Source: Streptomyces albogriseolus (lineage in GTDB: Bacteria > Actinomycetota > Actinomycetes > Streptomycetales > Streptomycetaceae). Taken from it: DNA of 64,000 nt. Below are positions 9,031-24,568 of the stretch, piece by piece. The notes under the pieces were generated by a model, which was not told where the DNA came from, did no database searches, and saw nothing but the letters and a program-made list of their open reading frames with translations. The stretch covers positions 62,001-126,000 of the forward strand of contig BMVA01000010.1 in assembly GCA_014650475.1 (NCBI GenBank), in the 5' to 3' direction. The position numbers were made by a program, and so were the translations under genes. How positions within the stretch are numbered: position 1 is the stretch's first letter; the number at the start of each line of letters is the position of its first letter.

Positions 9031-10268
9031 TACGGGACGGCCGGGGCCGAGTTCTCCGTGTCCGGGGGTGGGGGTGGGGTGTCGTCCGTGGTGGTCAGCC
9101 AGGTGGCCAGGCCCGCTGCTGCCAGGAGGGTCGCCGCCACCGCCAGGGTGAGGCGGCGGCGACGGGTGACCGCCCGGTTGCGGGCCGAGCCGGGGCGGGG
9201 GGCGCCCGCCGCCCGGGGGGCGCGGGCCGTGCCGTGGGCTCCCCCGGCCAGTTCGTCCGGCGCGGGGACGCGCATCGACGTGTGCGTGTCGCGGTTGGAG
9301 TCGGACGGCTTGGCGCCCGGCACCAGCGGGACCGCGCCGCGGCGGCGTACCGGCTGCCCGGCGGCGGGGGCGGCGCCGGACAGCTCCTCGGCGGTCTCCT
9401 CGGCCGGGTCGGTGTCCGGCTCGTCCACGTCCAGCGGCGGCATCCCGGCCAGCATCGGCAGCAGCTCCCGCAGCCGGGCGGCCAGCTCGGAGGCGCGCAG
9501 ACGCGAGGCCGGGGCCTTGGCCAGGCACTGCACCAGCAGCTGCCACAGCTCGTCCGGGATGCCGGGCAGCGGCACCACCATCTCGGTGACGTGCCGGCGC
9601 AGCACCGCGCCCGGGTGGCCGCCGCCGAACGGGGTGAAGCCGGCCAGCAGCTCGTAGAGGACCGTGGCGAGGGCGTAGATGTCGACGGCGGCGCGCGGCG
9701 GCAGGCCCTCGACGATCTCCGGGGCCAGATAGTCCGGCGTGCCGATGATCTTCGAGGCGCGGGTGCGGCGCGGGGTGTCGATGAGTTTCGCCACGCCGAA
9801 GTCGGTCAGCAGGGCGCGGTGCGAGCCGCCGGGGCCGAGCGGGCCCTGCATGTCCAGCAGGACGTTCTCCGGCTTGACGTCGCGGTGGACGACCCCGGCC
9901 GCGTGCGCCGCCGCCAGACCGTCCGCGACGTCCGCGGCGATCGCCACCGCGGCCTCCGGGGCCAGTCTGCGCTCGCGGTCCAGCCGGGTGCGCAGGTCGG
10001 TGCCCCGGACCAGGTCCATGACCAGGGCGAGGTCGTTGCCGTCGACCACCAGGTCCCGCACGGACACCACGTGCGGATGCTCCAGACCGAGCAGCGCCGT
10101 CCGCTCCTGCACGAAGCGGCCGACGAGCTCCTGGTCCGAGGAGAGATCCTCACGCAGCAGCTTGATGGCGACGGGCCCCTCGGGGCCCTCGCCCAGCCAC
10201 ACCGTGCCGGCGCTGCCCCGCCCGAGGATCTGATGGGCGGTGTACCGGCTGCCGATTCTCCGTGCCAA
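9030..10268 (-). CDS. Membrane Ser/Thr protein kinase (PknB-type)
   Basis: A 412-aa Hanks-type kinase. The glycine loop is GRGSAGTVW, the ATP lysine is Lys36 (VAIKLL), the catalytic loop is HRDVKPEN (Asp130), the metal-binding DFG is at 156-158, and IGTPDYLAPE marks the activation segment. The domain ends near 265. A Pro/Ala-rich linker leads to one transmembrane helix at about 375-395 (LTLAVAATLLAAAGLATWL) and a short external tail DDTPPPPP, with no PASTA repeats. It is followed on the same strand, going upstream, by a second kinase gene 109 bases away. Targets are not visible; the FHA protein encoded divergently nearby is a plausible partner. Confidence 0.93.
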   Translation of the reverse strand: MARRIGSRYTAHQILGRGSAGTVWLGEGPEGPVAIKLLREDLSSDQELVGRFVQERTALLGLEHPHVVSVRDLVVDGNDLALVMDLVRGTDLRTRLDRERRLAPEAAVAIAADVADGLAAAHAAGVVHRDVKPENVLLDMQGPLGPGGSHRALLTDFGVAKLIDTPRRTRASKIIGTPDYLAPEIVEGLPPRAAVDIYALATVLYELLAGFTPFGGGHPGAVLRRHVTEMVVPLPGIPDELWQLLVQCLAKAPASRLRASELAARLRELLPMLAGMPPLDVDEPDTDPAEETAEELSGAAPAAGQPVRRRGAVPLVPGAKPSDSNRDTHTSMRVPAPDELAGGAHGTARAPRAAGAPRPGSARNRAVTRRRRLTLAVAATLLAAAGLATWLTTTDDTPPPPPDTENSAPAVP

Positions 10269-10377
10269 GACTGCTCCTACCGACGCGTGTTGTCGCCAAA
10301 GCTACGCGTCCGGACAGGTGACCTTCACCGGAGACCCGGAAATCGGGCCCCAGATGTCGACAAAGCGGCAAACAAGC

Positions 10378-12027
10378 TCAGTTCGTCGGCTCCGAGGGGC
10401 CGCCCAGGTCCTCGATCCAGCCCGTGACCGAGCCGAACCAGTCGCTGAGCTGGTCCCAGTAGCCCTTGCCCGTGCCGATCCAGTCCTGGAGCGGGCTCAG
10501 CTCCCAGATCAGCCAGCTCGCGACGAACAGGATGAGCAGCGTGAACAGGCACCCCTTCAGGCAGCCGAGGCCGGGGATGCGCATCGGGTTGGCGCTGCGC
10601 TGCCGGGGCGGGCGCGGCTCCCGGGCGGGGCGCTGCGGCTCCGGCGGGGGCGCGTACCGCTGCGGCGGCTGGGGCTGCTGCCGGCGCTGGCGCTCCGGCG
10701 GCGGGGCGTACTGCTGCGGCGCGGGCTGCTGCGGGTAGCCGTACCCGGGGCCGGGCTGCGGCTGCTGGGGGTGGCGCTGCGGCGGCTGCTGCGGGGGCCG
10801 GGCCACCTGCCGCTGGGGGCGGCGGCGCAGCGGGTCCTGGCCGGGGTCGAGGTACTGGACCTGCGTCTGCTCGTTGCGGTCGCGGGCCGCGCGGAGCTGG
10901 TTCTGCCAGGGGTGCGGGTCCTCGGGGCCGCCGCCGGGCTGCCCGGGCGGCACCGGCGGCATCACGGCCGTGGGGTCGGCCGCGCCGGACGGGCCGGTCT
11001 GCGGCAGGACGCTGGTCGCGGCGCTGGGGTCGTAGGCGCCGTTCGGGTTCTGCGGCAGCACCTGCGTGGGGTCGGAGGCGCCGGGGGCGGACGGCTCCCC
11101 GGGGACCGGCGCGGGCGCGGGGTCGGGGGCGAGGAGCGCGCCGACGTTCTCCGCGGCGGAGATCTGCGCCGAGTTCGCGTGCACGCCGATGCCCTGGGCG
11201 ACGACCCGCAGGCCGCGCGCCAGATTCTCGGCGCTGGGCCGCTCCTCGGGGTTCTTGCGCAGGCAGCGCTCGATGACCGTCCACAGCGGGTCGGGCACGG
11301 TGGACGGGCGGCGCGGCTCGGCGCTCAGGTGCTGGTGCAGCACCTCCAGGGCGGACCCGCCGGAGAACGGCGGACGGCCGGTGACCAGCTCGTAGAGCAG
11401 GATGCCGGCGCCGTAGATGTCGACGGCGGAGGTCTGCGGGCGGCCCTCGGCCGACTCCGGCGCGATGTACGCGGGCGTGCCGACGAACTCGTGGGTGCGG
11501 GTCAGGCCCGGGGAGTCGGCGAGGCGCGCGATGCCGAAGTCGGTGAGCATCGGGTGCATCTCGCCGCCCTGCTGCTTGAGCAGGACGTTGGCGGGCTTGA
11601 GGTCGCGGTGGACGACGCCGTCGGCGTGGCTGGCCCCGAGCGCGTCGGCGATCTGCGCGGTGAGCAGGGCCGCGGCGACGGGGGTGAAGGGGCCGTTCTC
11701 CCGCAGGTGGCGGTGCAGGTCGGGGCCCTCGACGAGGTCCATGACCAGCGCCAGCAGCTCGCCCTCGACCACCAGGTCGCGGACCCGGACGATGTTGGGG
11801 TGGGTGAGCCGCAGCAGGACGGAGCGCTCGCGCAGGAAGCGCATCACGACGTCCGCGTCGCCCGCCAGCTCCTCCTTGAGGACCTTGATCGCCACGGTCT
11901 CGCCGGGCTGGCCCGGCACGGCCGCCTCGGCGCCCGCGGTCTCCCGCTGGCGCGCGCGCCAGACGGTGCCCGTGGCGCCGCGTCCGAGCGGCTCCTCGAG
12001 CAGGTACTTGCTCCCTACCGGCCGCAC
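10378..12027 (-). CDS. Membrane Ser/Thr protein kinase, second copy
   Basis: A 549-aa Hanks-type kinase with a glycine loop GRGATGTVW, Lys48 in VAIKVL, HRDLKPAN with Asp142, DFG at 163-165 and VGTPAYIAPE. After the domain (about 275) comes a 200-residue linker very rich in Gln, Pro and Arg, then one transmembrane helix near 505-525 (LFTLLILFVASWLIWEL) and a 25-residue external tail. The GTG at 12027 was chosen because GGGAG lies eight bases upstream and the kinase begins at once (RPVGSKYLLEEPLGRG); an ATG 24 codons earlier has no such support. It is paralogous and adjacent to the kinase at 9030-10268, suggesting tandem duplication. Confidence 0.92.
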   Translation of the reverse strand: MRPVGSKYLLEEPLGRGATGTVWRARQRETAGAEAAVPGQPGETVAIKVLKEELAGDADVVMRFLRERSVLLRLTHPNIVRVRDLVVEGELLALVMDLVEGPDLHRHLRENGPFTPVAAALLTAQIADALGASHADGVVHRDLKPANVLLKQQGGEMHPMLTDFGIARLADSPGLTRTHEFVGTPAYIAPESAEGRPQTSAVDIYGAGILLYELVTGRPPFSGGSALEVLHQHLSAEPRRPSTVPDPLWTVIERCLRKNPEERPSAENLARGLRVVAQGIGVHANSAQISAAENVGALLAPDPAPAPVPGEPSAPGASDPTQVLPQNPNGAYDPSAATSVLPQTGPSGAADPTAVMPPVPPGQPGGGPEDPHPWQNQLRAARDRNEQTQVQYLDPGQDPLRRRPQRQVARPPQQPPQRHPQQPQPGPGYGYPQQPAPQQYAPPPERQRRQQPQPPQRYAPPPEPQRPAREPRPPRQRSANPMRIPGLGCLKGCLFTLLILFVASWLIWELSPLQDWIGTGKGYWDQLSDWFGSVTGWIEDLGGPSEPTN

Positions 12028-17735: not shown

Positions 17736-19085
17736 ATGGCGGCGGACACGGCGGCGGGGGCCGCGAAGACGGCCCCCGCCGCTCCCAGGTCGCGCAAGAG
17801 CGTCACCGGCACCCGCAGGACCGTGGCGGCGCTGTTCCTGCTGCCCGCCCTGGTGCTGCTCGGGGCGCTCGTGGTCTACCCGATCGGGTACTCGGTCATC
17901 CGCAGCTTCTACGACCAGTCCGGCGACTCCTTCGCCGGGTTCGACAACTACCGGGCGCTTTTCACCGACGACGGCATCCGCACGGCGCTGAAGAACAACA
18001 TCATCTGGGTGGTGTTCGCCCCGACGGTCGCGACCGCGCTCGGTCTGATCTTCGCGGTGCTCACCGAACGGGTGCGCTGGGGCACGGCGTTCAAGCTGGT
18101 CGTCTTCATGCCGATGGCCATCTCCATGCTGGCGGCGGGCATCATCTTCCGCCTCGTCTACGACCAGGACCCGGACAAGGGCGTGGCGAACGCCGTCTGG
18201 GTGGGCGTGCACGACACCTTCGCCCAGTCCTCGGCGTTCCCGAAGGCGCACCCGGGCCGCGAGTCGCCGCTGGAGCCGGCCGGCGGGGGCGCGTTCGTCA
18301 CCAAGGGCACCGTGAGCGCCGGGGACACGGTGACGCTGCCACTGGTGGGCGTCGCCCCGGACGCGATGCCGCAGGACGCGGAACCGGCCGCGGCGCCCGA
18401 GCCGCAGGACGACCGGATCACCGGCAGCACCTGGCAGGACTTCACCCGCGGCAAGGGCGTCGGCGCGCTCAACCAGGTGGACTCCGCCGAGCTGGGGTAC
18501 GCCGGGATGCGGATCGAGGCGGTGAAGGACGGCGAGGTGGTGGAGACGGCGACGGCCGCCGCCGACGGCACGTTCTCCTTCTCGTCGAAGGCCGACGGGG
18601 CGCAGCTGCGGCTCCCGGCGAGCAACTTCAAGGAGCCGTACAACGGGCTCGACTGGCTCGGCCCGTCGCTGGTCACCCCGGCCGTGATCGGCTCGTACAT
18701 CTGGATGTGGGCGGGGTTCGCGATGGTGCTGATCGCGGCCGGGCTCGCCGGCATGCCGCGGGAGCTGCTGGAGGCCGCCCGGGTGGACGGCGCGAACGAG
18801 TGGCAGGTGTTCCGGCGGGTCACGGTGCCGCTGTTGGCTCCGGTCCTCGCGGTGGTCACCGTCACCCTGATGATCAACGTCCTGAAGGTGTTCGACCTGG
18901 TGTTCATCATCGCGCCGGGCTCGTCCCAGGACGACGCGAACGTCCTCGCGCTGGAGCTGTACCGCAAGGGCTTCTCCGAGGACCAGCCTGGCGTCGCCAG
19001 CGCCATCGCGGTGTTCCTGCTGCTGCTGGTGATCCCGGTGATGTGGTTCAACGTACGGCGGCTGAGGCGGGAGGTGCGGCGATGA
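17736..19085 (+). CDS. ABC sugar permease (MalF-type) with a large external insertion
   Basis: A 449-aa permease; usual members have 290-320. Helices are at about 30-52, 88-110, 118-142, 312-336, 365-390 and 420-440. The EAA motif that meets the ATPase is at 344-360 (ELLEAARVDGANEWQVF). Between helices 3 and 4, on the outer face, are about 160 extra residues (roughly 145-305). They include a stretch reading like a small beta-sandwich (GYAGMRIEAVKDGEVVETAT, ADGTFSFSSKADGAQL), similar to carboxypeptidase-regulatory or Ig-like domains. It follows the lipoprotein gene by six bases and overlaps the next permease by ATGA. The inserted domain may contact the binding protein or a wall polymer (inference). 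Confidence 0.9.
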   Translation: MAADTAAGAAKTAPAAPRSRKSVTGTRRTVAALFLLPALVLLGALVVYPIGYSVIRSFYDQSGDSFAGFDNYRALFTDDGIRTALKNNIIWVVFAPTVATALGLIFAVLTERVRWGTAFKLVVFMPMAISMLAAGIIFRLVYDQDPDKGVANAVWVGVHDTFAQSSAFPKAHPGRESPLEPAGGGAFVTKGTVSAGDTVTLPLVGVAPDAMPQDAEPAAAPEPQDDRITGSTWQDFTRGKGVGALNQVDSAELGYAGMRIEAVKDGEVVETATAAADGTFSFSSKADGAQLRLPASNFKEPYNGLDWLGPSLVTPAVIGSYIWMWAGFAMVLIAAGLAGMPRELLEAARVDGANEWQVFRRVTVPLLAPVLAVVTVTLMINVLKVFDLVFIIAPGSSQDDANVLALELYRKGFSEDQPGVASAIAVFLLLLVIPVMWFNVRRLRREVRR

Positions 19086-20044: not shown

Positions 20045-20143
20045 TCGTGCGATGTGATTCCCCCGGATGCCGCAGGGTGCGTAACCAAGGCGGGCCAACG
20101 GGCGTTGCCGGGCAGAACGCCCGCACCGACCGTTGGATGCCCC

Positions 20144-21495
20144 TTGCCCAGGTTCAGTGTCATTGTCCCCGTGTACCAGGTTCAGGCGTATCTGCGCGAG
20201 TGCCTGGAGTCGGTGCTGACCCAGTCGTACCCGGATCTCGAACTGATCGCCGTGGACGACTGCTCGCCCGACGCCTGCGGAGCGGTGATCGACGAGTTCG
20301 CGGCCCGCGACCCGCGGGTGCGGCCGGTGCACCTGCCGGCCAACGTCGGCCTGGGACCCGCCCGCAACGCGGGCATGGCCCGCGCGACCGGCGACTACCT
20401 GGTGTTCCTGGACGGCGACGACACCCTCACCCCGGACGCGCTGCTCGCCGTCGCCGACCGGCTGAAGGAGACCGGCGACCCGGACGTCCTGGTCTACGAC
20501 TACGCCCGCGCCTACTGGACCGGCGAGACCGTGCGCAACCAGGTCGCCGCCCAGCTCTCCGAGCACGGCCCGGCGCCGTTCGCCCTCGCCGACCGGCCCG
20601 GGCTGCTCAGCCTGCTCGCGGTGGCCTGGAACAAGGCCTACCGGCGGGAGTTCGTCGAGCGCGCCGGGTTCGCCTTCCCGCCGGGCTACTACGAGGACAC
20701 CCCGTGGACGTACCCGGTGCTGATGACGGCGGGGACGATCGCCACCCTCGACCGGGTGTGCGTGCACTACCGGCAGCGGCGCGCCGGGGGCATCCTGCAC
20801 ACCACCAGCGAGCGCCACTTCGAGGTCTTCGGCCAGTACGACCGGGTCTTCGCCCACCTCGACGCGCACCCCGGCCTGGAGCGCTGGCGGCCGGTGCTGT
20901 TCCGCCGCATGGTCGACCATCTGCTGACCGTGTACACCCGCCCGGACCGGCTGCCGCGCGGCTCCCGCGCCGCCTTCCTGCGCCGGGCCCGCGACCAGTA
21001 CCGGCGCCACCGCACGCCCGGCGCGTCCGTCCCCGCCCGCGCCCGGGTGCGGCACGCGCTGGTCCGGTTCGGGCTGCACCGCACCTACCGCACCCTGCGC
21101 CTGGCCGCGGCCCTGGGCCGCCGCGCGGGCCGGCTGCGCCGCCGTGCGCTGCGCAGTCTGCGCCGCGTCCTGCTGCGCACCCACTACCGCGTGCAGCGGC
21201 TGCTCCCGCTGGACACCGGCCGCGCCCTGTTCACCGTCGAGGACGACGGCGGCTACGGCGGCGACCCCGCCGCCCTGGAGTCGGCGGTGCGCGACCACGC
21301 CCCGCACGTCCGCACCGCCTGGGCGGCCCGCCCCGAGCTGCACCACACCCTGCCCACCGCCACCCGCCGGCTGGCGCCCGGCACCGCCGCCCATCTCACC
21401 GCGCTGGCCCGCAGCGCGTACCTGGTGACCGACCGCACGCGCGTGCCCGGGCTGGTCAAGCGCAAGGGGCAGATCCTGGTGCACACCCCGCCCGG
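20144..21495 (+). pseudogene. Truncated glycosyltransferase 2 / CDP-glycerol glycerophosphotransferase gene
   Basis: The first 450 codons encode a GT2 domain (RFSVIVPVYQVQAYLRECLE, then VFLDGDDTLTPDA carrying the DxD-like motif, ending near 280). A linker and the start of a glycerophosphotransferase-like domain follow. Homology stops abruptly after KRKGQILVHTP. Family members continue with HGTPLK... and about 250 more residues; here the DNA switches to the antisense of a regulator gene. The frame stays open by chance to 22234, so a chimera could be translated, but it would run into the downstream VOC gene. The TTG at 20144 starts LPRFSVIVPVY as homologues do. An intact copy would modify teichoic-acid-like wall polymers. 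Confidence 0.78.
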
Positions 21496-21503
21496 ACGGG
21501 TGC
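21488..21503. other. Recombination/deletion junction truncating two convergent genes
   Basis: Left of this point the plus strand matches the glycosyltransferase family; right of it the minus strand matches a WYL regulator. Both lose their 3' parts here. The exact base cannot be fixed by eye because the junction lies in CCCCGCCCGG-like sequence compatible with either side. A deletion between two tail-to-tail genes, or an assembly join, explains it. Confidence 0.65.
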
Positions 21504-22030
21504 AGGGTGCGGTCGCCGTGCCGCCCCTCGCGGTCGGTGTAGCGGACCGAGACCGGCCGGTGGTGGTGCACCGCGTCGGCCAGGGTGAGCAGCACTCCCG
21601 CGTCCGGGCTCGCGGACTTCCCGGACCCCTCCGTGAAGGACAGGGACTCCAGCAGGGCATCCAGTCGCCGGGTCAGGTGCCGGGGCAGCACCCGCCGGAT
21701 CTTCGCCGCCGCCGTCTCGTTCGCCGTGCGCTGCGCCGCCGTCAGCCCCGCCCCGCGCCCGGCGACCAGGCCGAGCAGCACCGCCAGCGCCTCCTCGTCG
21801 CCGAACATCAGCGGCGGCACCCGGTAGCCCGGTCCCAGCCGGTACCCGCCGTAGCGTCCGCGTACCGACTCCACCGGTACGTCCAGGTCGGTCAACTGGC
21901 CCACGTACCGCCGCACGGTGCGTCCGTCCACACCCAGTCGGTCGGCCAGTTCGGCCACCGTGCGGGTGCCGCCCGACTGCAACAGCTCCAGCAGGGTCAG
22001 CACACGGGCGGCGGGTCGGGGCACGGTCAC
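21496..22030 (-). pseudogene. 3'-truncated WYL-domain transcriptional regulator (YafY type)
   Basis: From a GTG at 22030 the protein shows an HTH_11 domain (VLTLLELLQSGGTRTVAELADRLGVDGRTVRRYV), a linker and the first third of a WYL domain. It ends at SVRYTDREGRHGDRTLHP. The usual sequence continues HPxGLVxHxGRWY and about 130 more residues; instead the frame reads into antisense of the glycosyltransferase. The missing part includes the ligand-sensing WYL core. Such regulators usually sit divergently from a VOC gene, exactly as here, so the VOC gene has probably lost its controller. Confidence 0.78.
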
Positions 22031-22119
22031 CAAGCTAGTGCGGATACCGGGCGGATTCTGTCCGCTATTGCTCCTACGGTCGGCCGTGCACGCCATCCGT
22101 ACGGCCGAGGAGTCTCCCC

Positions 22120-22485
22120 ATGCAGTTCGCATCCGTCCGTGTCATCACCGCCGACGTGGCCCGCCTCGTCGCCTTCTACGAACGCGTCCTGGGCGTGTCC
22201 GCGACCTGGGCCACGGAGCATTTCGCCGAGCTGAGGACCGACGGCGCCACCCTCGCGATCGCCGGCACCGCCACCGTCCCGATGTTCGCCCCCGGCTCCG
22301 CCCGCCCTGCGGACAACCACAGCGCGATCGTCGAGTTCCTCGTCGACGACGTGGACCGCGTCCACAAGGAACTGGCCGACGTCCTCACCGACGTCGTCAA
22401 CGGCCCCGCCACCATGCCGTGGGGCAACCGCTCCCTGCTGTTCCGCGACCCCGACGGCAACCTCGTCAACTTCTTCTCCCGCTGA
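22120..22485 (+). CDS. VOC-family (glyoxalase/bleomycin-resistance-like) protein
   Basis: A 121-aa protein with two beta-alpha-beta-beta-beta modules (FASVRVITADVARLVAFYERV near the start, LLFRDPDGNLVNFF at the end). The family binds a metal and acts on small molecules as dioxygenase, isomerase, lyase or by sequestration; the substrate is unknown. GAGGAG lies seven bases before the ATG. It is transcribed divergently from the truncated WYL regulator, the usual control arrangement for this family in actinobacteria. Confidence 0.9.
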   Translation: MQFASVRVITADVARLVAFYERVLGVSATWATEHFAELRTDGATLAIAGTATVPMFAPGSARPADNHSAIVEFLVDDVDRVHKELADVLTDVVNGPATMPWGNRSLLFRDPDGNLVNFFSR

Positions 22486-22605
22486 CGGACCGTGTGTGTC
22501 CGGTCACTGTCCGGGGATCGTCCGTAGTCGTCGGGACCGTATCCGCCGTTGGTGCCGGTAGGACGCCGGTGTGCGTCACGGACGGTTCCGAGGGAGAGGT
22601 GCGGG

Positions 22606-23484: not shown

Positions 23485-23666
23485 GCAGTGAGCTGAACTG
23501 GTTCAAGAGCAGCTACAGCGGCGGCAACGACGGCAACTCCTGCGTCGAACTCGCCCTCACCCCCCGTACCGTCCACGTCCGCGACTCGAAGGACACCGCC
23601 GGCCCCCGGCTGGCCTTCGCCCCGGCCGCGTGGGCGCGTTTCCTGCCGTACGTGTCCGGCGACTGA
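23481..23666 (+). CDS. DUF397-domain small protein
   Basis: 61 residues with the complete DUF397 signature: WFKSSYSGGNDGNSCVELA, VHVRDSKD and FAPAAWARFL. It is translationally coupled to the preceding XRE gene (ATGA). In related modules the DUF397 protein binds and modulates its cognate XRE regulator. A terminator-like hairpin follows at once. Confidence 0.94.
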   Translation: MSSELNWFKSSYSGGNDGNSCVELALTPRTVHVRDSKDTAGPRLAFAPAAWARFLPYVSGD

Positions 23667-23673
23667 CCGCGCT

Positions 23674-23706
23674 CCGGTCCGCCCGCTCCAGCAGCAGGCG
23701 GACCGG
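23674..23706 (+). terminator. Terminator after the DUF397 gene
   Basis: CCGGTCCGCC pairs perfectly with GGCGGACCGG around a 13-base loop, eight bases after the stop. Confidence 0.75.
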
Positions 23707-23805
23707 GTCGTCCAGGCCGGGGGCCGCCTTCCAGATCTGTCGGCTTGGTCAGCACCCGATGGCGTGAACCTGGGTGAGTTCCGACCTGGGGATGGCCGGT
23801 CGGCC

Positions 23806-23836
23806 GGTTGTGTGGATGCCGTATGCATCACCAACC
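23806..23836. promoter_or_regulatory. Imperfect dyad upstream of the toxin-antitoxin pair
   Basis: GGTTG...GATGC-cgtat-GCATC...CAACC forms nested arms centred near 23822, about 30-60 bases before the toxin start. Such dyads are typical antitoxin operators, so self-repression is inferred. Confidence 0.4.
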
Positions 23837-23865
23837 GCCCTGCTCCCCGAACGGAACGAACGGCC

Positions 23866-24246
23866 ATGTCGGCATCGCCGGAACAGGATCTCTACGTCAT
23901 CGAAGTCGAGCCGGAGGTCCGGGCTTGGCTGGAGACTCTTCCGCTCCCGGACTACCGAGCTGCCGAACGGTTCGCGGACCGGCTGGCCACCGAGGGTCCC
24001 GCGCTGCCGTTCCCGCTGGCCAGCCACCTCGGTGACGGGCTCAGAGAGCTGCGGATCGGGCCGGTGCGCGTCACCTACTGGTTCGCCCCCGGCCGACGAG
24101 CCGTCCTCCTCACTGTCTTCCGTAAGACCAGAATGCGGGAGAGGGACGAAGTGCTGAGAGCGCAGCGAGCGAGGAAACTGTGCGAGGCGGAGCACTCTCC
24201 GGCCGGTGAGCACGCCGTCTACGGTAGGGACGAGGAGGCGCGATGA
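23866..24246 (+). CDS. RelE/HigB-like toxin (Gp49-type)
   Basis: A 126-aa protein with the features of phage-derived Gp49-like/HigB ribonuclease toxins. It has a helical N-terminal half, then LRELRIGPVRVTYWFAPGRRAVLLTVFRKTRMRERDEVLRAQRAR, where the basic residues and the F-K-T motif form the mRNA-cleaving surface. The start at ATG 23866 (MSASPEQDLYVIEVEP) matches the family; an earlier ATG 34 codons upstream adds unrelated residues. The toxin gene precedes the antitoxin gene with a 4-base ATGA overlap, the higBA order. It would cleave ribosome-bound mRNA when free of its antitoxin. Confidence 0.82.
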   Translation: MSASPEQDLYVIEVEPEVRAWLETLPLPDYRAAERFADRLATEGPALPFPLASHLGDGLRELRIGPVRVTYWFAPGRRAVLLTVFRKTRMRERDEVLRAQRARKLCEAEHSPAGEHAVYGRDEEAR

Positions 24247-24551
24247 GCAGCGGATATCACACGAGCTGGAAAGTGCCGTCGGAGCATCGTGAGGATCCGG
24301 CGTACCGCGCTGCGGGCCGGCGCATGGACTTCGCCCAGGCCGTCTACGACCGGCGCTCCGTCCTCGGCTGGTCCACCGCGGAGCTCGCCCGGCGTGCTGA
24401 GCTCTCCGAGGAGGACGTCGAGGCCATCGAGGAGAGCAGTGTCGAGCCCACGCTGGAGCTGATCGAACGACTGGCCACGGCTCTGGAAGCCGGTGCCCGT
24501 ATCGACCCTCGTAACAGTCCCGAGTTCCGGTTCGAGGGATACGCGGCCTGA
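24243..24551 (+). CDS. XRE-family antitoxin (HigA-like)
   Basis: 102 residues with a helix-turn-helix in the second half: VLGWSTAELARRAELSEEDVEAIEESSVEPTLELIERLATAL. It is coupled to the upstream toxin gene by ATGA. Antitoxins of this class bind the toxin and repress the operon; the candidate operator is at 23806-23836. Confidence 0.83.
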   Translation: MSSGYHTSWKVPSEHREDPAYRAAGRRMDFAQAVYDRRSVLGWSTAELARRAELSEEDVEAIEESSVEPTLELIERLATALEAGARIDPRNSPEFRFEGYAA

Positions 24552-24568
24552 TCCGGCGCCACGACGAA

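What the first reader, a model, noticed from the sequence alone, without database searches (positions are those of the whole stretch)
20144..22030. One junction truncates two convergent genes, a GT2/glycerophosphotransferase and a WYL regulator
Plus-strand homology to the glycosyltransferase family stops after KRKGQILVHTP. Minus-strand homology to a WYL regulator stops after GDRTLHP. Both stops fall at about 21488-21503. A single deletion between tail-to-tail genes explains this, and the joined frames remain open by chance over hundreds of codons. The result disables a wall-polymer modification gene and the likely repressor of the divergent VOC gene. It may be recent, as neither remnant has decayed.
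Basis: partly seen in the sequence, partly recalled or inferred. Interest (0 to 1): 0.8.

Follow-up and report, generated by a model that had tools for sequence, protein, structure and literature searches.

The report
Large chromosomal inversion cutting two genes
A roughly 390,000-base piece of a Streptomyces chromosome appears to have been flipped, cutting two genes in half and leaving their other halves stuck together elsewhere in the same genome; the flip probably also turned a ribosomal RNA operon to face the DNA-copying machinery, which is rare in this genus.

Summary
In detail: at window 21491-21494 one junction cuts a GT2/CDP-glycerol glycerophosphotransferase gene (+) and a WYL regulator gene (-). 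The explanation does not: it is no deletion. The 'missing' halves are in the same genome, fused to each other at G000:C30:10656-10659. In relative G027 both genes are whole, 385.8 kb apart on one contig, in opposite orientation, and four contig-end probes are collinear outside the breaks and reversed inside. This is a balanced inversion of about 386 kb with 4 bp of shared sequence (CCCG), one changed base at the window junction and no other loss. Among 392 Streptomyces genomes searched, no other listed row shows the join. All four gene halves are open, so it is recent. Both breaks lie in one replichore and the segment holds an rRNA operon, which should now face the replication fork. Published surveys report 99.6% of Streptomyces rrn operons co-oriented and most large inversions pericentric, so this is an uncommon case of a known kind of event. 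The head-on rrn is inferred from a draft assembly plus synteny.

The parts
20144..21490 (+). 5' part (449 of 746 codons) of a GT2 / CDP-glycerol:poly(glycerophosphate) glycerophosphotransferase gene
   Evidence: Pfam Glycos_transf_2 1-165/168 and Glyphos_transf 2-103/367; whole 746-codon ORF in 5 of 5 closest named species
21491..21494 (.). inversion breakpoint J1: 4-bp shared sequence CCCG
   Evidence: overlap of the two G027 alignments; reciprocal junction J2 at G000:C30:10656-10659
21495..21495 (.). single changed base at the junction: G, where G156 and G027 read T; the tyrosine codon it belongs to is kept in 18 of 18 regulator loci examined
21497..22030 (-). 5' part (178 of 334 codons) of an HTH-WYL regulator gene
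   Evidence: HTH_11 and WYL 2-36/70; the remaining 154 codons with WYL 37-69/70 and WCX at G000:C30
22120..22485 (+). divergent VOC/glyoxalase-family gene, 89 bp from the regulator's start codon; moved with the WYL half, itself intact
   Evidence: Pfam Glyoxalase; gap counted
20144..22234 (+). chance fused open frame created by the inversion (696 codons)
   Evidence: openness of the same antisense frame in relatives

Best explanation
A single balanced inversion of about 386 kb inside one replichore. Shown: the breakpoints lie in a GT2/glycerophosphotransferase gene (A) and a WYL regulator gene (B), and both reciprocal products are in this genome, A-left joined to B-left in the window and B-right joined to A-right on contig C30. 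Shown: the parental-type sites of relatives share CCCG in inverted orientation, and all bases on both sides are accounted for except one T to G change at the window junction. Inferred: two double-strand breaks were rejoined crosswise by end joining aided by short homology, without long repeats or a recombinase. Inferred: the inverted segment carried one rRNA operon, which is now transcribed towards the origin, head-on to the fork, and moved from about 710 kb to about 420 kb from dnaA (G027 coordinates). The event is recent and seen only in this genome.
For: Split match on one G027 contig in opposite orientation, 6140659(+) and 6526449(-). Reciprocal junction found by searching G000 with the two 'missing' halves: C30:10661-13647(+) and 10155-10656(-), read directly. 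Complementary domain pieces at the two junctions. Four contig-end probes: C10 left = 6069737-6073728(+), C10 right = 6309340-6313287(-), C30 left = 6531544-6536634(-), C30 right = 6182739-6187768(+). C30 and C28 overlap by 19 exact bases where G027 is continuous, and the far end of C28 is collinear with G027. The 200-bp join is unbroken in no listed genome but G000, and the sites are apart in all 4 named genomes searched. A has 700 codons or more in 79 of 80 GTDB loci. B is open across the site in 18 of 18 loci examined. dnaA is at G027 C1:973, and the two ends of that contig are adjacent in G000:C3, so both breaks lie in one replichore. rRNA strand. Ku gene.
Against: The two junctions are on different contigs of a 66-contig draft, so the 386-kb length and the single-event reading rest on G027's order, and G027 is the only relative in which I saw both sites on one contig. 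The inside of the segment was probed at contig ends and near the junctions, not walked. C30 ends inside the rRNA operon (only its 5S is seen), so a later rrn-rrn recombination could have changed what lies beyond. Between C28 (to about 6.60 Mb) and the origin contig C3 the route was not walked: C3 matches G027 around dnaA and again at 6.79 Mb, but its last ~7.7 kb did not match the 20-kb G027 stretch compared. Random crossovers share 4 bp or more in 3.6% of trials, so microhomology is suggestive only.
Confidence: 0.94

Rival explanations
1. A single deletion between two tail-to-tail neighbours removed the 3' ends of both genes.
For: It looks so from the window alone.
Against: Both 3' halves are in the genome and joined to each other on C30; the genes are 386 kb apart in G027.
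Confidence: 0.01
2. Assembly artefact: two mis-joins in a draft genome.
For: Draft of 66 contigs; no reads were available to map.
Against: An artefact would have to make two exactly reciprocal joins on two contigs at sites sharing only 4 bp. No unbroken copy of A or B appears in the listed matches of the own genome.
Confidence: 0.03
3. A reversible, site-specific (programmed) inversion switching the two genes.
For: GTGCAC occurs in register 6 bp before CCCG at both parental-type sites; such an in-register 6-mer within 20 bp was seen in 2.2% of random CCCG pairs (a test chosen after seeing it).
Against: The shared run at the crossover is only 4 bp; a base changed at J1; the join is in no other listed genome of 392; the flip breaks both genes rather than swapping ends. 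No recombinase search was made.
Confidence: 0.02
4. The G000 order is ancestral and the relatives are derived.
For: None found.
Against: Two broken genes would have had to become whole members of conserved families, whole in 79 of 80 and 18 of 18 loci examined.
Confidence: 0.005

Closest known systems
Large inversions of Streptomyces chromosomes (PMC9723626, PMC8743542)
   Same: Large inversion in the rrn-bearing central part of the chromosome, with one end 47 kb from an rRNA operon in G027 coordinates
   Different: The published ones are mostly pericentric, i.e. about the origin; this one lies within a replichore and is resolved to the base
Illegitimate double-strand-break repair in S. ambofaciens (PMC5869714)
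   Same: Joining without long homology, in a Ku-bearing genus
   Different: The passages seen describe deletions, circularisation and arm exchange; the word inversion is not found in that text. Here two ends are exchanged reciprocally with nothing lost
Engineered inverted rRNA operons in Bacillus subtilis (PMC2797598)
   Same: An rrn operon turned against the fork by inversion
   Different: Here it would be natural, and it is predicted from synteny rather than measured

Membership tests
Balanced chromosomal inversion | both reciprocal junctions present | tested here: met
   J1 in the window, J2 at C30:10656-10659
Balanced chromosomal inversion | segment between the breaks reversed relative to both flanks | tested here: met
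   four contig-end probes and the junction neighbourhoods; the middle of the segment was not walked
Balanced chromosomal inversion | no net loss or gain at the breaks | tested here: met
   746 = 449+1+296 codons for A; 334 = 178+2+154 for B; one substituted base
Deletion | intervening DNA absent from the genome | tested here: not met
Repeat-mediated (homologous) inversion | long inverted repeats or IS copies at both ends | tested here: not met
   the sites share a run of only 4 bp at the crossover, and 12 of 30 and 8 of 30 bases on its two sides
NHEJ / microhomology end joining | Ku/LigD-dependent origin | not testable with these tools
   one Ku gene present; LigD not searched; mechanism cannot be shown from sequence
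Pericentric (symmetric) Streptomyces inversion | breaks in opposite replichores | tested here: not met
   dnaA at G027 C1:973, contig ends adjacent in G000:C3; breaks about 374 and 760 kb away on the same side
Head-on rRNA operon | rrn transcribed towards the origin | tested here: inconclusive
   5S on the - strand of C30, origin side to the left through C28; operon cut by the contig end, and the route from C28 to dnaA not walked

The most novel reading that the evidence does not exclude
A natural Streptomyces tolerates a recent, non-homologous, within-replichore inversion that turned one rRNA operon head-on about 420 kb from the origin, against the published view that streptomycete inversions are symmetric; with its co-oriented close relatives it forms a ready natural experiment on replication-transcription conflict.
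Probability: 0.65. Interest if true: 0.5.

Novelty: new member of a known kind. Interest (0 to 1): 0.42.

Why it matters
It corrects a plausible reading of a double truncation: two genes broken at one point need not mean loss of DNA. It gives a base-resolved inversion with both products in hand, in a genus where inversions are reported to be symmetric (passage), mostly pericentric, with 99.6% of rrn operons co-oriented. If the rrn operon really is head-on, the cost of that orientation can be measured in a natural strain against close relatives.

Tried and rejected
Deletion: rejected by the reciprocal junction. Misassembly: judged very unlikely for the same reason. Selection on the fused frames: no support, since the frame is often open in relatives.

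Decay test: singleton changes in G000 against five close species gave 3 synonymous and 4 non-synonymous for A-left (the five others together 54 and 15, Fisher P 0.06), and 5 and 2 for A-right (others 37 and 11, P 0.66). In a three-way comparison with G156 and G027, G000 had 0 and 2 for B-left and 3 and 0 for B-right. Too few changes to show relaxed selection. No stop or frameshift in any of the four halves.

Special sequence at the breaks; left as a hint. An Rfam search of the A region of G027 found nothing. Literature searches; 'Streptomyces' with 'paracentric inversion' gave 2 papers, by their listing a meeting report and a banana review. Two first motif scans for whole WYL genes were too strict and missed loci; the third counted 18 of 18. 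Those 18 loci were 6, 8 and 4; L135 was left out of that count because it appears to be the same place as L152.

The regulator's start (22030) and its gap to VOC (89 bp) were corrected.

Full report
What is in the window. A gene that starts at TTG 20144 on the plus strand encodes a GT2 domain and the first 103 of 367 profile positions of CDP-glycerol:poly(glycerophosphate) glycerophosphotransferase; on the minus strand from 22030 an HTH-WYL regulator runs to WYL position 36 of 70. Both stop at 21491-21494. The five nearest named species (S. werraensis, S. althioticus, S. cellulosae, S. griseoincarnatus, S. pseudogriseolus) have the first gene whole, 746 codons. Of the 80 GTDB loci kept (of 518 found), 79 have it at 700 codons or more and one, L113, stops at codon 493.

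Not a deletion. Window 20100-22500 was searched against 61 genomes, its own included. In G027 it splits at exactly this point: bases 1-1396 at C1:6139264-6140659 on + and 1392-2387 at C1:6525454-6526449 on -. I then searched the window's own genome with the G027 DNA that follows each half. Both are present and meet: C30:10661-13647(+), the rest of the transferase, and C30:10155-10656(-), the rest of the regulator. Reading C30 shows CACGATCCCG from the regulator running into GCACCCCG of the transferase. Domain pieces are complementary: Glyphos_transf 106-366, and WYL 37-69 plus WCX, on C30. Codons add up: 449+1+296 = 746 and 178+2+154 = 334.

Breakpoints. The parental-type sites are CCGCCCGGCACC (S. 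werraensis) and GATCCCGTACGG (G156). The shared run is CCCG. The window junction reads CCCGGACGG, so the T after CCCG in the regulator is now G; the tyrosine codon it belongs to is kept in 18 of 18 regulator loci examined. Otherwise nothing is lost or added. In random pairs of positions a shared run of 4 bp or more occurred in 3.6% of trials. The genome has one Ku gene. End joining aided by short homology is the likely route; this is inference.

Extent. Probes from contig ends fit G027 as one inversion: C10 left end at 6069737-6073728(+), C10 right end at 6309340-6313287(-), C30 left end at 6531544-6536634(-), C30 right end at 6182739-6187768(+). The break-to-break distance in G027 is 385.8 kb. 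Contig C28 continues C30: their ends overlap by 19 exact bases where G027 is continuous, and the far end of C28 is still collinear. The two junctions are on different contigs, and G027 is the only relative in which both sites were seen on one contig.

Age. A 200-bp query across the join was searched in 392 Streptomyces genomes, G000 included; 269 had some match, and among the listed rows only G000 matched without a break (the tail of lower-scoring rows was not shown). In the four named close relatives held (a fifth, S. althioticus, was not held) the two sites are on different contigs. All four halves are open. Counts of singleton changes do not show relaxed selection with confidence.

Place on the chromosome. 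dnaA lies at G027 C1:973. The two ends of that contig are adjacent in G000:C3, so it is a rotated contig with the origin at its ends, and the breaks are about 760 and 374 kb from the origin on the same side. G027 has six places that match the rrn-end sequence at the end of C30: four in one orientation at 0.45-2.34 Mb and two in the other at 6.19 and 6.69 Mb; Rfam puts the last two on the minus strand, and the strand of the other four is inferred from the match orientation. All six would thus be co-directional with replication in G027. The 6.19-Mb operon is inside the inverted segment. On C30 its 5S gene is on the minus strand, with the origin side to the left, i.e. transcription towards the origin. 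Only the 5S is seen before the contig ends. From G027 coordinates the operon should now lie about 420 kb from dnaA instead of about 710. Against certainty: C3 matches G027 at 6.79 Mb, but its last ~7.7 kb did not match the stretch compared, and 6.60-6.79 Mb was not walked.

Literature. PMC9723626 (passages, and sections 17 and 18 read in full) states that 99.6% of rrn operons in its panel of 127 Streptomyces genomes are in the direction of continuous replication, names S. lincolnensis and S. bingchenggensis as exceptions, and finds that most large rearrangements are pericentric inversions. PMC8743542 (passages) says inversions occur symmetrically between replichores rather than within one. PMC5869714 (passages) shows illegitimate repair in S. 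ambofaciens. PMC2797598 (abstract and outline) reports that inverted rRNA operons in B. subtilis obstruct replication in rich medium. So the event type is known; a within-replichore inversion carrying an rrn operon is uncommon.

Function. The first half still holds a complete GT2 domain, and the C-terminal half stays open on C30 in a 437-codon frame. Two full-length paralogues (733 and 738 codons) follow it directly, so loss of function may be buffered. The regulator keeps its HTH but loses half of WYL and all of WCX. It starts 89 bp from the divergent VOC gene; regulation of that gene is a guess from layout.

Noticed in passing
window 23655-24559: A ~905-bp stretch with a Gp49-like (DUF891) protein gene and an HTH gene (toxin-antitoxin-like pair) is absent at this place in G027 (about 15 bp there) but present at 97% in G156:C48.
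   Followed up: partly
G000:C30:9532-10154 (locus L132): About 620 bp close to the reciprocal junction correspond to only ~100 bp in G027; the 278-codon ORF overlapping it matches no Pfam family.
   Followed up: partly
window 17736-19085: Sugar ABC transporter permease whose best-matching stretches in two different family models are residues 20-110 and 306-443, leaving about 195 residues between them.
   Followed up: no
G000:C30:44663-44710, - strand (locus L133:6945-6992): A raiA-hairpin RNA lies within the inverted segment on C30.
   Followed up: no
L113 (Streptomyces sp. P3): The orthologous transferase gene stops at codon 493, apparently after a frameshift close to the protein position of the break seen here.
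   Followed up: no
G000:C3:581200-588868 (locus L181): The last ~7.7 kb of the origin-bearing contig do not match the G027 stretch compared, so another difference lies there.
   Followed up: no
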